From positions 1-25,125 of the IMG/VR virus record IMGVR_UViG_3300025617_000108: a stretch of 25,125 nt of DNA; one strand, given 5' to 3'. Shown piece after piece: positions 6,196-18,498 of the stretch (positions are counted from its first letter, which is position 1; every line of letters begins with the position of its first letter). The position numbers and the translations under genes were made by a program. The notes below the pieces were generated by a model. That model saw nothing but the letters and a program-made list of their open reading frames with translations. It did not search any database and was not told where the DNA came from. This DNA comes from a virus.

Positions 6196-7142
6196 CCCCA
6201 GTCATCTCCTTCCAATCCGTGTGCGTTATAGTCTGTCACCCTCTTCTCAAAGAAATTAGAAATAGAGGAACCCCCAAGCAACTCCTCCATCCACGGTAGA
6301 GGGTTCTCCTTAACCTTCCAGTTAGTCTTAAGTCCAAGTTGGAGTAGTCGGCGGTCTGCCAAATATCTAATGTACTGCTTAACATCTGCCGCCGACAAAC
6401 CTTCCAAGTCACCCATCTCATACGCAAGATCAATAACCTTGTCTTCAAGTTTGACTGCAGTGCGGAACATCTCATATATATCTTTCTTAAAATCATCATT
6501 CACAATCCGTGGGTGCTCATCACAGAACTCCCTGAATAACTTAGCCATACCTTCAGCGTGTTGTGACTCATCACGTACAGACCACTCGACAACTGTACAC
6601 ATACCCGGCATCTTACCGAATCTTTGGTAGTTGAGTAGCATAGCGAATGCACTGAACAGGCTCATCCCTTCATTCATCACTGAGCGAGCAATCGACAATC
6701 CAGTTCCTGCAATACTATGTGTGTCAATATCGGACATGAACTCCAGTTTTGCAGACATTTGCTGATACTCTAGGAAGGTTGTGAATTCTTCTTCAGGTAG
6801 TCCAAGAGTATCATTAAGGAGGGCATATGCACGTTGATGGATGAACTCTCTACTAGCAAAGGCTGTAAGCATTGCCCGGATCTCATTGTTCTTAAACTTG
6901 GGAATATAATACTCCAAGTAGTTTGTCCCAACCGCAACGTCTGTCTGCGTGAACAACCGCAGAATCTGGGTGATATGGTTCTTCTCTGATTGCGATAAGA
7001 CATCTGACTTCCAGTGGTTGACATCTGTTTGTAGCTCTAGCTCATCCTCAATCCAGTGAATACGCTCATGCTCTGTTGCATAAGTGACAGCCCAAGGATA
7101 TGCGAATGGCTTGTATGTTGTATTACTCTCCAGTAGGCTCAT
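6189..7142 (-). CDS. nrdB: Ribonucleotide reductase class I, small subunit (R2)
   Basis: A 317-residue R2 protein, which houses the di-metal centre and tyrosyl radical that activate NrdA for NDP-to-dNDP reduction in the cytoplasm. Metal ligands line up with E. coli R2 spacing: D68, E99, H102, E158, E192, H195 (E. coli D84, E115, H118, E204, E238, H241), in TQTDVAVG, REFIHQRAY, MNEGMSLF and RDESQHAEGM. The radical tyrosine is present as Y106 in EFIHQRAY, equivalent to Y122. The C-terminal tail (NAHGLEGDDWGW) is the flexible acidic/aromatic peptide that docks on the large subunit. It is shorter than the cellular form (about 375), usual for phages. The ATG directly follows the TAA of the preceding gene with no gap. 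Confidence 0.97.
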   Translation of the reverse strand: MSLLESNTTYKPFAYPWAVTYATEHERIHWIEDELELQTDVNHWKSDVLSQSEKNHITQILRLFTQTDVAVGTNYLEYYIPKFKNNEIRAMLTAFASREFIHQRAYALLNDTLGLPEEEFTTFLEYQQMSAKLEFMSDIDTHSIAGTGLSIARSVMNEGMSLFSAFAMLLNYQRFGKMPGMCTVVEWSVRDESQHAEGMAKLFREFCDEHPRIVNDDFKKDIYEMFRTAVKLEDKVIDLAYEMGDLEGLSAADVKQYIRYLADRRLLQLGLKTNWKVKENPLPWMEELLGGSSISNFFEKRVTDYNAHGLEGDDWGW

Positions 7143-16241: not shown

Positions 16242-16453
16242 ATCCGTACCTCTTTCGCCTTGTCTAAATACTCTACTACCTTTTCGACAGAGTTCTTGAT
16301 TGTCTCAAACTCATACATAATTTCATACAGTTCTTTGGTATACGTTTCAATGTCATTCAATTCTGCTCTCTGATCCTTCAAGTCTATGATCCAATCATCC
16401 AACTGGGCAAGCCTGAATTCAAAGTCTTTCAAATTGTTTTCAAAGTGTGTCAT
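16238..16453 (-). CDS. Small coiled-coil protein (unknown)
   Basis: A 71-residue protein with strong heptad character along most of its length (LKDFEFRLAQLDDWIIDLKD, then YEFETIKNSVEKVVEYLDKA), probably a coiled coil or helical hairpin. AAAGAGGA lies upstream, the same ribosome binding word used by the genes at 17.3-18.1 kb. It overlaps the end of the small membrane protein gene by 14 bases. Function unknown. Confidence 0.65.
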   Translation of the reverse strand: MTHFENNLKDFEFRLAQLDDWIIDLKDQRAELNDIETYTKELYEIMYEFETIKNSVEKVVEYLDKAKEVRI

Positions 16454-16706: not shown

Positions 16707-17306
16707 TCATTTAATCCCATGAATTCTGCGCCATACCACCCAGGTTATCGCTTGCATCTCATAGGCTTTTAGTTGTTTACCATTGACACTCACAAGCACA
16801 CCCGCATGTTTGTACGCAGTCTGTATTGTTGCATACTCTTTCTTTCCGATAGAAATACTACCGGTCAATCCTACTCTTTTCGCATGATAGATGTTGTATG
16901 CATGGCCATCGACAGTACAGGTATTCTCACCCATTATATTCTCGAAGAAGCACACAATCTTTTGACCATTGAGTGTCTGTTTTGTTTCCTCATAGTCTGG
17001 CATCTCACCAATAATACGCCATGCTTTTTCTTTCATCTTTCCGTATGTCGATACCTTGAATGACTCTATGCTGTCACCATTGACAAACGCAGTACATAAA
17101 CTCCTCGCATTGTCAATGTTCCTGTCCCACTTGTTATTGGGTGATAGTGCCGCTGTTACACCCACCACAATATGTATCGGTAAATCTAGGTCTTCTGCTA
17201 TCTTTAAACATTCACAGTATGCAGTGCTGTACCATGTTACGCCATGCTCAATCTCTTCTGGTGTTGCCAGATTGTAGATACTCAATATATTGTCAATGCT
17301 CATCAT
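16707..17306 (-). CDS. Possible HhH-GPD-like protein (unknown function)
   Basis: A 199-residue protein. The pattern VTAALSPNNKWDRNIDNA, then GQKIVCFFENIMG and CTVDGHAYNIYHAKRVGL recalls DNA-glycosylase-like helix-hairpin-helix proteins, where a VD-x-H segment carries the catalytic Asp. The resemblance is only a motif-level impression, and the typical GVGPKTA hairpin is not evident. A longer frame reaches 17366, but the tandem ATGs at 17306/17303 follow AAAGAGGA with good spacing. It is preceded by a 7-bp hairpin and a TATAAT. If real, a base-excision or modified-base role early in infection would fit. Confidence 0.75.
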   Translation of the reverse strand: MMSIDNILSIYNLATPEEIEHGVTWYSTAYCECLKIAEDLDLPIHIVVGVTAALSPNNKWDRNIDNARSLCTAFVNGDSIESFKVSTYGKMKEKAWRIIGEMPDYEETKQTLNGQKIVCFFENIMGENTCTVDGHAYNIYHAKRVGLTGSISIGKKEYATIQTAYKHAGVLVSVNGKQLKAYEMQAITWVVWRRIHGIK

Positions 17307-17325
17307 AGTTTCCTCTTTAGTGATA

Positions 17326-17358
17326 GTGCAGTTATGAATACTGCACCATCTCATTATA
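17326..17358 (-). promoter_or_regulatory. TATAAT plus leader hairpin before the 199-residue gene
   Basis: Minus strand: TATAAT (17358-17353), six bases, then GTGCAGT-ATTCATA-ACTGCAC (17346-17326), a perfect 7-bp stem with a 7-base loop, then CTAAAGAGGA before the ATG. The hairpin spans the stop codon of the upstream 84-residue gene. No -35 is evident, so the promoter part is weaker than the hairpin. Confidence 0.5.
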
Positions 17359-17586
17359 GTTTTCAAGTACTAAATCATAAAGTGTATCGGTTTTCCATTC
17401 TGCATCATCCGGTGTTTTATTCGGTAATGCTAGCAGAATATTGGTGCATGCTTCCTGTAAAGTTTGTTTCATGTAGACCGCTTTTTCAACTTCATTCATC
17501 ATTAGATTGTACATTGGTTCATCATTGTTCAACCATAGCGCAGTGTTCCAATGATCGTATGACTCATAACCATTATATGTTTGCAT
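17332..17586 (-). CDS. Small conserved-looking phage protein (unknown)
   Basis: An 84-residue protein starting MQTYNGYESYDHWNTALWLN. This Tyr/Trp-rich opening followed by NNDEP and helices (YNLMMNEVEKAVYMKQTLQE) looks like a short family seen in many phages, but I cannot name it with confidence. A longer frame goes to 17640; ATG 17586 is chosen because AAAGAGGA precedes it and the leader hairpin lies just upstream. Its stop is embedded in the hairpin of the next leader. Confidence 0.7.
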   Translation of the reverse strand: MQTYNGYESYDHWNTALWLNNDEPMYNLMMNEVEKAVYMKQTLQEACTNILLALPNKTPDDAEWKTDTLYDLVLENYNEMVQYS

Positions 17587-17606
17587 TGTTCTATCCTCTT
17601 TCAAAG

Positions 17607-17655
17607 TAGGCAGTTTAGTGTGTTGCCTAGCACCATGCAATTATACTTTAGTCTA
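17607..17655 (-). promoter_or_regulatory. Repeated promoter-leader module, copy 1
   Basis: Minus strand: TAGACTAAAGTATAAT (17655-17640), ten bases, then hairpin TAGGCA-(11)-TGCCTA (17629-17607), then AAAGAGGA and the ATG of the 84-residue gene. Its 5' TAG is the stop codon of the preceding gene. It shares the -10 block and the loop/stem (CTAAACTGCCTAC) with the copy at 17888-17936. If transcription starts about seven bases after TATAAT, the hairpin would sit at the very 5' end of the mRNA. Confidence 0.6.
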
Positions 17656-17859
17656 GCCTGCAAAGTTTGCAGTGTGTCGTGCTCGCATATCCAATGCAAT
17701 ACTAATTTTTCCTAGATGTAGTTGCGTAAATGTATTCTGTTTCTCAATACCGAACCCACGTGATTTCTTTTTACGTAGTGCGATAAAGCCTTTGAGTTTC
17801 TTACCAATTGCGAAACGCTTACGTCCATTCACAGTCTCTGTTACTTTGATTCCAAACAT
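17653..17859 (-). CDS. Small basic protein (unknown)
   Basis: A 68-residue, strongly basic protein (MFGIKVTETVNGRKRFAIGK, then LRKKKSRGFG), plausible as a nucleic-acid or ribosome-binding early protein; no family recognised. The ATG at 17859 follows AAAGAGGA; a longer frame to 17883 lacks a ribosome binding site. It is headed by leader copy 2 and its TAG stop is part of leader copy 1, so gene plus leader form a discrete unit. Confidence 0.65.
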   Translation of the reverse strand: MFGIKVTETVNGRKRFAIGKKLKGFIALRKKKSRGFGIEKQNTFTQLHLGKISIALDMRARHTANFAG

Positions 17860-17887
17860 TGTAGTTTCCTCTTTAAGTTTCAATGTG

Positions 17888-17936
17888 TAGGCAGTTTAGC
17901 GTCTTACCTAGGACAATTCTATTATACTTTAGTCTT
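17888..17936 (-). promoter_or_regulatory. Repeated promoter-leader module, copy 2
   Basis: Minus strand: AAGACTAAAGTATAAT (17936-17921), ten bases, hairpin TAGGTA-(11)-TGCCTA (17910-17888), then TTAAAGAGGA and the ATG of the 68-residue gene. Compared with copy 1 the stem has T for C, giving U-G instead of C-G in leftward RNA; on the opposite strand it would be a C-A mismatch. This favours a hairpin acting in the leftward transcript. No good -35 is visible. Confidence 0.6.
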
Positions 17937-18135
17937 ATAGGAAGTTATCCTGCTGTTTCATTTGTTCACTCACAAACTCTACGATTTCAATCCGGTCCTT
18001 TAGTGGGCATCCTTTATCCTTCAAGATGTCTTTGACCATGCTCAAGAATCCGTATGCGTCAACCTTCACAGTACCTTCAGTGTGCTCATTAAAGTTTGTC
18101 ACTATCTTTGTTGCTCTGTCTAAGTTTGTTCTCAT
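17935..18135 (-). CDS. First gene of the leftward operon (unknown)
   Basis: A 66-residue helical protein (MRTNLDRATKIVTNFNEHTE start; later MVKDILKDKGCPLKDRIEIV). No family recognised. ATG 18135 is chosen over the frame start at 18195 because AAAGAGGA lies directly upstream and the longer version would read through an 8-bp hairpin. It is the most promoter-proximal leftward gene, so presumably among the first made after infection. Its TAA stop abuts the GACTAAAG-TATAAT block of the next leader. Confidence 0.65.
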   Translation of the reverse strand: MRTNLDRATKIVTNFNEHTEGTVKVDAYGFLSMVKDILKDKGCPLKDRIEIVEFVSEQMKQQDNFL

Positions 18136-18157
18136 TTGTTTATCCTCTTTAGTAGTT

Positions 18158-18188
18158 GATGGTTGTATTGAAACATAGTCCAACCATC
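18158..18188 (-). promoter_or_regulatory. Leader hairpin before the first leftward gene
   Basis: Minus strand GATGGTTG (18188-18181), 15-base loop, CAACCATC (18165-18158): a perfect 8-bp stem ending about 15 bases before the CTAAAGAGGA ribosome binding site of the 66-residue gene. Stem sequence is unrelated to the other three leader hairpins, but the position relative to the ribosome binding site is the same. Confidence 0.6.
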
Positions 18189-18380
18189 GAGTCAAAGATT
18201 AATTTGTTATAAGCATATTCGATTTAGTTATAACGTCTGTTATATATAAGTATGATTGTCAAGTATCATAGTTTGTATCATGTGTCAATGGCTTTGTAGT
18301 CTAAGATGATTGGTGCAATGCAATAGGGCTATAGGGTGCTACATAGACTCTCACACTTTGTCAATTAGACCATAGTCTAT

Positions 18381-18396
18381 ATTATACTTTAGTCTA
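18381..18396 (-). promoter_or_regulatory. GACTAAAGTATAAT block, copy 3
   Basis: Minus strand TAGACTAAAGTATAAT, identical over 16 bases to the block at 17640-17655. It is the copy farthest upstream and would start a leader of about 240 bases before the first leftward gene. A TAGAC-TATG-GTCTA hairpin begins one base after the TATAAT. At 17-base spacing the -35 position reads TGTCAA, a poor match, so promoter activity is uncertain. Confidence 0.45.
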
Positions 18397-18403
18397 ATAA
18401 GCC

Positions 18404-18432
18404 TTGACAGTCTGTTTAGATTGTGATAGACT
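18404..18432 (+). promoter_or_regulatory. Candidate rightward promoter upstream of the structured leader
   Basis: TTGACA (18404-18409), 17 bases ending TGA, TAGACT (18427-18432). Perfect -35, ideal spacing, extended -10 TGN, and a -10 retaining TA...T. The expected start near 18439 coincides with the first base of the GCGGCA stem. It is about 250 bases upstream of terS, so it could make a long leader or a short non-coding RNA. Confidence 0.55.
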
Positions 18433-18438
18433 ATAGAG

Positions 18439-18498
18439 GCGGCATAGAAATAGGGCCGGGGAGGGCTGTATAGTTTTGCAGTTCATTACAGTTGCCGC
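18439..18498 (+). ncRNA. Candidate structured leader RNA
   Basis: Outer stem GCGGCA (18439-18444) with TGCCGC (18493-18498); inner stem CTGTA (18466-18470) with TACAG (18487-18491), and a G-rich internal stretch (GGGCCGGGGAGGG, about 18453-18465) that stands out in an AT-rich region. It begins where the 18404 promoter would start transcription. No known riboswitch or RNA family recognised; presence of a real RNA is inferred. Confidence 0.3.

What the first reader, a model, noticed from the sequence alone, without database searches (positions are those of the whole stretch)
17326..18188. Serial gene cassettes, each with a leader hairpin and the same ribosome binding word
Four consecutive leftward genes (66, 68, 84 and 199 residues) each have a perfect or near-perfect hairpin just upstream of (C)TAAAGAGGA or AAAGAGGA: 8-bp stem at 18158-18188, 6-bp at 17888-17910, 6-bp at 17607-17629, 7-bp at 17326-17346. 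Stem sequences mostly differ while position is kept, which argues for structure rather than shared ancestry alone. In three cases a TATAAT lies 6-10 bases upstream, placing the hairpin at the predicted 5' end of the mRNA, as in 5' stabilising hairpins. Stop codons of upstream genes are built into the next leader, so each gene looks like an exchangeable module. I know of no named system of this form.
Basis: partly seen in the sequence, partly recalled or inferred. Interest (0 to 1): 0.72.

Follow-up and report, generated by a model that had tools for sequence, protein, structure and literature searches.

The report
Widespread phage RNA pseudoknot between genes
Two of the four 'leader hairpins' belong to a previously uncatalogued 28-nucleotide RNA knot that sits between genes in viruses of very different bacteria and is almost absent from the sampled bacterial genomes, and which I think guards the ends of viral messages, although that role is untested.

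Summary
The four small leftward genes and four stems are in the sequence, but they are not one thing. Stem 1 overlaps a promoter-like sequence conserved in relatives and is not conserved itself. Stem 4 is a strong 11-bp hairpin seen only here. Both helices covary. A full descriptor finds 285 distinct copies in held loci against 3 in reversed sequence. It occurs in phages of Staphylococcus, Streptococcus, Geobacillus, cyanobacteria and roseobacters and in metagenomic phages. Beyond the two genomes used to define the groups, none of 863 sampled cellular genomes has it. Rfam has no matching family. It lies between genes, on the coding strand, usually starting 5 nt after a stop codon, and 3-4 nt before some tRNAs. 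In the window's relatives, promoter+pseudoknot+gene cassettes are reshuffled, like PeSL cassettes of T4-type phages. My best guess is a roadblock protecting ends of phage mRNAs; function is inferred.

The parts
17888..17915 (-). Pseudoknot copy 1: S1a UGUC 17915-17912, L1 C 17911, S2a UAGGUA 17910-17905, L2 A 17904, S1b GACG 17903-17900, L3 CUAAAC 17899-17894, S2b UGCCUA 17893-17888
   Evidence: descriptor hit; covariation in the family
17607..17633 (-). Pseudoknot copy 2: S1a GUG 17633-17631, L1 C 17630, S2a UAGGCA 17629-17624, L2 A 17623, S1b CAC 17622-17620, L3 ACUAAAC 17619-17613, S2b UGCCUA 17612-17607
   Evidence: descriptor hit
17921..17935 (-). Promoter-like AGACTAAAGTATAAT before pseudoknot copy 1; with the preceding bases it overlaps the stop codon of the 66-aa gene
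17640..17654 (-). Promoter-like AGACTAAAGTATAAT before pseudoknot copy 2; overlaps the stop codon of the 68-aa gene
18381..18395 (-). Third copy of AGACTAAAGTATAAT, main leftward promoter-like site, well conserved in relatives ahead of different first genes
17606..17654 (-). Promoter-leader repeat unit (49 nt), 86% identical to 17887-17935
17887..17935 (-). Promoter-leader repeat unit (49 nt)
17935..18135 (-). 66-aa gene, no family match
17653..17859 (-). 68-aa gene, no PHROG match; follows its own pseudoknot leader in reshuffled relatives
17332..17586 (-). 84-aa gene, phrog_871, unknown function
16707..17306 (-). 199-aa gene, phrog_3842, unknown function; preceded by the pseudoknot in L103 and L106
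17322..17350 (-). 11-bp plain hairpin (one G-U) across the stop codon of the 84-aa gene; window only among loci held
18158..18188 (-).
18167..18195 (-). Promoter-like TTGACT-N17-TTCAAT, kept in relatives that lack the inverted repeat

Best explanation
Cassettes 2 and 3 each consist of a promoter-like AGACTAAAGTATAAT, a 28-nt H-type RNA pseudoknot, an AAAGAGGA ribosome-binding site and one small gene. SHOWN by computation: the pseudoknot belongs to a large family with two covarying helices, an invariant single-C first loop and a WAAAC third loop; the family lies between genes on the coding strand, is found in phages of unrelated hosts and is almost absent from the cellular genomes sampled; and in the window's relatives promoter+pseudoknot+gene modules have been reshuffled. 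INFERRED: it acts as a mechanical roadblock punctuating phage mRNA. Where it follows a promoter, as here, it would fold at the first nucleotides and shield the 5' end. Where it follows a stop codon, it would stop exonucleases entering from the 3' side or chewing in from upstream, so each cistron keeps its own stability. Confidence: about 0.93 that the pseudoknot family is real, about 0.4 for the roadblock role.
For: Covariation: with S2 fixed by the search, 117 of 124 distinct copies form at least 3 of 4 S1 pairs, against about 50 when partners are shuffled. With only S1 and the loops required, 218 of 253 form at least 5 of 6 S2 pairs, with changes on both sides at S2 positions 3, 4 and 5 (33, 18 and 13 cells), which the search patterns could not impose. 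Specificity: 285 distinct hits against 3 in reversed sequence; on the earlier set, 216 hits against 2-6 when the first loop is not C and 0-6 when the third loop differs. Whole phage records: 47 hits, 0 for the backward pattern. Not in Rfam. Position: 292 copies with genes of the same strand on both sides against 2 with both opposite; start usually 5 nt after a stop codon, floor 4 nt; 3-4 nt before most adjacent tRNAs, never just after one. Neighbouring genes are diverse and hosts unrelated, which suits a host-independent mechanical role. Modules reshuffled. Precedent: flavivirus xrRNAs block bacterial RNase J1 mechanically (PMC5760640).
Against: No transcript, decay or structure data exist here. 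The position relative to the stop codon is tight while that to the next start is loose, which points to a 3'-end role, yet in the window family the element stays with the downstream gene, which points to a 5' role; the roadblock model covers both but does not predict which. A spacing of 5 nt from a stop codon is also frameshift-element geometry, so a terminating ribosome would touch it. S2 is A-U rich, hence not very stable on its own. The strong sequence conservation could instead mean a binding partner. Copy number per genome is low (1-6), so it is not needed by most genes.
Confidence: 0.6

Rival explanations
1. Translational device: the pseudoknot meets the ribosome terminating at the upstream stop codon and controls release, recycling or re-initiation, so that translation of neighbouring genes is uncoupled or tuned.
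For: Sharp mode of 5 nt after the stop codon, floor 4 nt, close to frameshift-pseudoknot spacing; a ribosome-binding site with start codon follows in many copies (36% against 9% of random positions).
Against: Copies stand 3-4 nt before tRNA genes and directly after promoters (window), where no coupling is possible; no excess of read-through or frameshift ORFs.
Confidence: 0.2
2. Operator for a protein or small molecule: S2 and the WAAAC loop are recognised by a conserved phage or host factor that represses or processes the message, as gp32 does at the T4 gene 32 leader pseudoknot.
For: Sequence conservation beyond pairing (first loop C, WAAAC, last S2 pair A-U in all 218 copies); same topology as the gene 32 pseudoknot (PMC3014915).
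Against: Neighbouring genes share no pathway; hosts range over unrelated bacteria; no protein shared by all carriers was sought or found. Part of the conservation is imposed by the search patterns.
Confidence: 0.18
3. Transcription element: the nascent pseudoknot pauses RNA polymerase or makes it resistant to terminators (put-like), helping long phage operons to be read through.
For: Coding-strand bias; early position after promoters in the window; U-rich sequence after many copies.
Against: No enrichment of terminator-like hairpins within 100 nt downstream (7 of 184, against 21 of 564 random); presence in the middle of operons and before tRNAs.
Confidence: 0.1
4. Nothing but recombination handles: the repeats are shared leader DNA at which cassettes recombine (PeSL-like) and the RNA structure is incidental.
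For: Reshuffled gene order around the repeats in L103, L104 and L106; 86% identical 49-nt repeats.
Against: Compensatory changes in both helices across unrelated phages need selection on RNA pairing; many other phages carry single copies.
Confidence: 0.04

Closest known systems
PeSL cassettes (promoter-early stem-loop) of T4-type phages, Arbiol et al. 2010 and Comeau et al. 2014
   Same: Repeated intergenic promoter-plus-structure units in a region of small genes, with modules shuffled between related phages
   Different: As I recall the papers (not held; cited in PMC4503421) the stem-loop is a transcription terminator; here the structure is a pseudoknot without a U-tract in the window copies, followed by a ribosome-binding site, and the family also occurs without promoters
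T2/T4 gene 32 leader pseudoknot
   Same: H-type pseudoknot in a phage mRNA leader upstream of the ribosome-binding site (PMC3014915)
   Different: Gene-specific autoregulation by gp32; T4 has no match anywhere to the consensus found here
Exoribonuclease-resistant RNAs (xrRNAs) of flaviviruses
   Same: Compact virus-encoded pseudoknotted fold acting as a mechanical block without a cofactor; a tested one stops bacterial RNase J1 (PMC5760640)
   Different: Ring-like fold in RNA viruses; no shared sequence known to me; blocking not tested here
SAS/ESAS repeats of cluster K mycobacteriophages
   Same: Repeated short elements in front of a subset of phage genes
   Different: 13-bp asymmetric repeat; its inverted repeats do not support RNA pairing according to its authors (PMC3203893)
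STAXI motif
   Same: Small pseudoknot RNA candidate near mobile-element genes
   Different: Tandemly repeated, Enterobacteriales, UUCG loops (PMC2864571); no Rfam match to our copies

Membership tests
PeSL cassettes of T4-type phages | promoter joined to a structure, repeated between small genes | tested here: met
   AGACTAAAGTATAAT plus pseudoknot, two 86% identical copies
PeSL cassettes of T4-type phages | structure is an intrinsic terminator (stem-loop with U-tract) | tested here: not met
   window copies are followed by CACATTGAAAC and CTTTGAAAG; no terminator enrichment in the family
PeSL cassettes of T4-type phages | modules shuffled between related genomes at the repeats | tested here: met
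   gene order differs around the repeats in L103, L104, L106
PeSL cassettes of T4-type phages | genome is a T4-type myovirus | tested here: not met
   window encodes DNA polymerase I-type, primase/helicase and a 686-aa portal, no T4-type hallmark seen
T4 gene 32 pseudoknot operator | located upstream of a gene 32 homologue and bound by it | tested here: not met
   neighbouring genes diverse; no consensus match in T4; binding itself not tested
xrRNA (exonuclease-resistant RNA) | stops a processive 5'-3' exonuclease | not testable with these tools
   needs an RNase J1 assay
xrRNA (exonuclease-resistant RNA) | fold with the 5' end threaded through a ring | not testable with these tools
   needs a 3D structure; the pairing found is a simple H-type pseudoknot
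Any Rfam 15 family | match at or near gathering score over the element | tested here: not met
Metabolite riboswitch | found upstream of genes of one pathway, in bacterial genomes | tested here: not met
   diverse phage genes; no hits in 863 sampled cellular genomes other than the two centre genomes that carry it
SAS/ESAS of cluster K mycobacteriophages | GGGATAGGAGCCC 3-7 bp before the start codon | tested here: not met
   not in the leader sequences

The most novel reading that the evidence does not exclude
Phages of unrelated bacteria share a minimal host-independent RNA roadblock, a 28-nt pseudoknot that stops bacterial exonucleases and so gives each phage cistron (or tRNA-flanked message) its own protected end: a DNA-phage counterpart of flavivirus xrRNAs.
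Probability: 0.3. Interest if true: 0.92.

Novelty: categorically new. Interest (0 to 1): 0.8.

Why it matters
A tiny, strongly conserved RNA fold found in phages of Staphylococcus, Streptococcus, cyanobacteria and roseobacters and in many metagenomic phages, but almost absent from sampled cellular genomes, points to a shared viral need in mRNA handling that no catalogue I could search lists. It stands just before scaffold and capsid genes in staphylococcal and streptococcal phages, between ribonucleotide reductase and glutaredoxin genes in cobaviruses, and in front of tRNAs, so its function can be tested at once in well-studied phages. If it blocks exonucleases, it would be a new way for phages to resist mRNA decay and a compact tool for stabilising RNA in bacteria.

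Tried and rejected
Megablast of 9 kb of the window against annotated phages: no match. A first leader pattern built on the promoter plus CTAGG gave three chance hits in unrelated sequence. Rfam: only sub-threshold or unrelated hits. Stop-codon read-through or frameshifting was considered because of the 5-nt spacing; extension ORFs are not long. Pseudoknot as terminator: no downstream terminator enrichment, although the sequence after it is T-rich. A host-range test through prophages was uninformative because cellular genomes almost never carry it; no match in E. coli genomes by short-query BLAST. The mismatch control (A.C in S2) was not empty: its 35 stretches also have good S1 pairing, so A.C seems tolerated at S2 position 2. 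Covariation at S2 position 2 is partly imposed by my search patterns and is not used as evidence. Genetic-context calls rest on simple ORF finding, so the '+-' and '-+' classes are noisy; one verified convergent case (L138, ribonucleotide reductase on the other strand) and one probable divergent case (L141) were found. The PeSL papers, and a 2023 catalogue of candidate structured RNAs in viruses and phages (Fremin et al., recalled from memory), are not in the library, so an earlier listing of this motif cannot be excluded.

Full report
WHAT WAS CLAIMED AND WHAT IS THERE. The window is a 25-kb virus record with rightward structural and lysis genes and leftward replication genes (primase/helicase, DNA polymerase, ribonucleotide reductase). 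Folded as plain hairpins, stems 2 and 3 are not better than chance (z +0.7 and -0.1; 30% and 13% of random 60-nt windows have as good a stem). Stems 1 and 4 are unusual (about 0.1% each). AAAGAGGA also serves the 71-aa gene at 16453, which has no stem, so it is the ordinary ribosome-binding word.

STEM 1 AND STEM 4. In relatives L002, L102, L104 and L106 the region of stem 1 keeps TTGACA/TTGACT-N17-TTCAAT (TTTACT in L106), a promoter-like sequence, while the inverted repeat is lost. In the window the upstream arm lies in the spacer of that sequence and its -10 part in the loop, so RNA started there would lack half the stem. Stem 4 is an 11-bp hairpin (17322-17350; -16.7 kcal/mol for the stretch, none of 200 shuffles as stable). 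Its TATAAT is coding sequence for E-N-Y-N-E-M, kept in the 84-aa homologue of L002. In L103 and L106 a pseudoknot, not this hairpin, stands before the 199-aa gene.

STEMS 2 AND 3 ARE HALF OF A PSEUDOKNOT. The two leaders are 49-nt repeats, 86% identical, each starting with AGACTAAAGTATAAT, which occurs three times exactly in the window. This gives an H-type pseudoknot: S1a, a single C, S2a (TAGGCA), one base, S1b, nTAAAC, S2b (TGCCTA). One loop of one base over six pairs and one A-rich loop of six bases is the geometry I recall for the gene 32 pseudoknot of T2.

THE FAMILY. A pattern for promoter plus pseudoknot found clear copies in unrelated phages. Among 124 distinct copies with S2 fixed by the search, 90 form all four S1 pairs and 117 at least three; partner shuffling gives 13 and 50. 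With S1 and the loops required and S2 left free, 218 of 253 form at least five of six S2 pairs; changes on both sides occur 33, 18 and 13 times at S2 positions 3, 4 and 5, which no search pattern imposed. The full descriptor finds 285 distinct copies against 3 in reversed sequence in 3.9 Mb; on the earlier set only C serves as first loop and only WAAAC as third loop. In 26 whole phage records it occurs 47 times, the backward pattern never, and on one strand per genome except in one cyanophage record (W02) where the same stretch is present in both orientations. The compensated G-C version of S2 again gives at least 120 stretches, the A.C version 35 in all. Related copies count more than once in these figures. 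Rfam 15 has no match.

WHERE IT OCCURS. Annotated carriers include about 91 Staphylococcus phage records (a shorter S2; in the two records examined it lies between the head morphogenesis gene and the scaffold and capsid genes), Streptococcus Javan407 (before scaffold and capsid), cobaviruses SIO1, P12053L and ICBM1 (after ribonucleotide reductase, before glutaredoxin where annotated), Microcystis LMM01 and Synechococcus S-EIVl, Nostoc NMeng1 (4 nt before a tRNA) and Geobacillus GR1 (after a holin). T4 has none, and short-query BLAST found none in 5,426 E. coli genomes. Of 865 sampled genomes (Gammaproteobacteria, Bacteroidota and the order of a Ligilactobacillus), two match, both being centre genomes known to carry it, so 0 of the other 863.

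POSITION. Both neighbours are on the same strand as the pseudoknot in 128 and 164 copies, both opposite in 0 and 2, in two separately fetched sets. The distance from the upstream stop codon has a floor of 4 nt and a mode of 5 nt in both sets; the distance to the next start is broad. Where a tRNA closely adjoins, it lies downstream by 1-10 nt, mostly 3-4, never upstream that close. Neighbouring genes are diverse; scaffold proteins recur downstream and minor head proteins upstream.

CASSETTES. In the window family the order is 66-68-84-199 (window), 66-84-68-199 (L103), 84-68-199 (L104) and 66-68-199 (L106). The leader with S1 TGTC/GACG stays with the 68-aa gene in the window, L103 and L104 although its upstream neighbour changes.

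HOW IT MAY WORK. Shown: fold by covariation, strand, intergenic position, phage association, reshuffling. Inferred: with +1 about 7 nt after TATAAT, window transcripts would begin with S1, a paired 5' end; after stop codons and before tRNAs the knot would cap the 3' end left by cleavage. A host-independent roadblock to exonucleases explains the variety of hosts and genes, and xrRNAs show that a virus fold can stop RNase J1 (PMC5760640). A translational role at the stop codon, a bound factor, or a transcription role remain possible; none was tested.

LIMITS.

Noticed in passing
window 18200-18460: Intergenic region rich in TAGACTA/TAGTCTA words, with an inverted repeat TAGACTATGGTCTA next to the main leftward promoter-like site; the block CTGTCAAGGCTTRTTAGACTAAAGTATAATATAGACTATGGTC is well conserved in relatives ahead of different first genes. 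Possible operator or middle-promoter element.
   Followed up: partly
L086 3246-3330, L089, L101, L112: A second leader type after the same ACTAAAGTATAAT promoter (GTTAACGAAACGTGCAAAGAGGAGCACAT) stands before two different genes in other phages; not the pseudoknot.
   Followed up: no
L238, L157, L204, L393, L405, L452, L376: The pseudoknot ends 3-4 nt before a tRNA-Asp in many phage contigs.
   Followed up: partly
L276 about 6400-6480 (minus strand): A copy after a TTGACA...TAAAAT promoter-like sequence and before a terminator-like hairpin with T6, upstream of a tape measure gene: could be an attenuator arrangement.
   Followed up: no
L183 465-560: Two pseudoknots about 65 nt apart flank a short hairpin-like stretch.
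   Followed up: no
L118, L133, L237: Small genes ending in a shared C-terminus like PAFVRALKEIV* each followed by a pseudoknot 5 nt after the stop: paralogous small-gene cassettes in other phages.
   Followed up: no
L277, copies starting at 1865 and 2665 of the minus strand: Two nearly identical pseudoknot-gene cassettes (MGRRRCIC.../MARRRCIC...) 800 nt apart in a Nautiliaceae contig.
   Followed up: no
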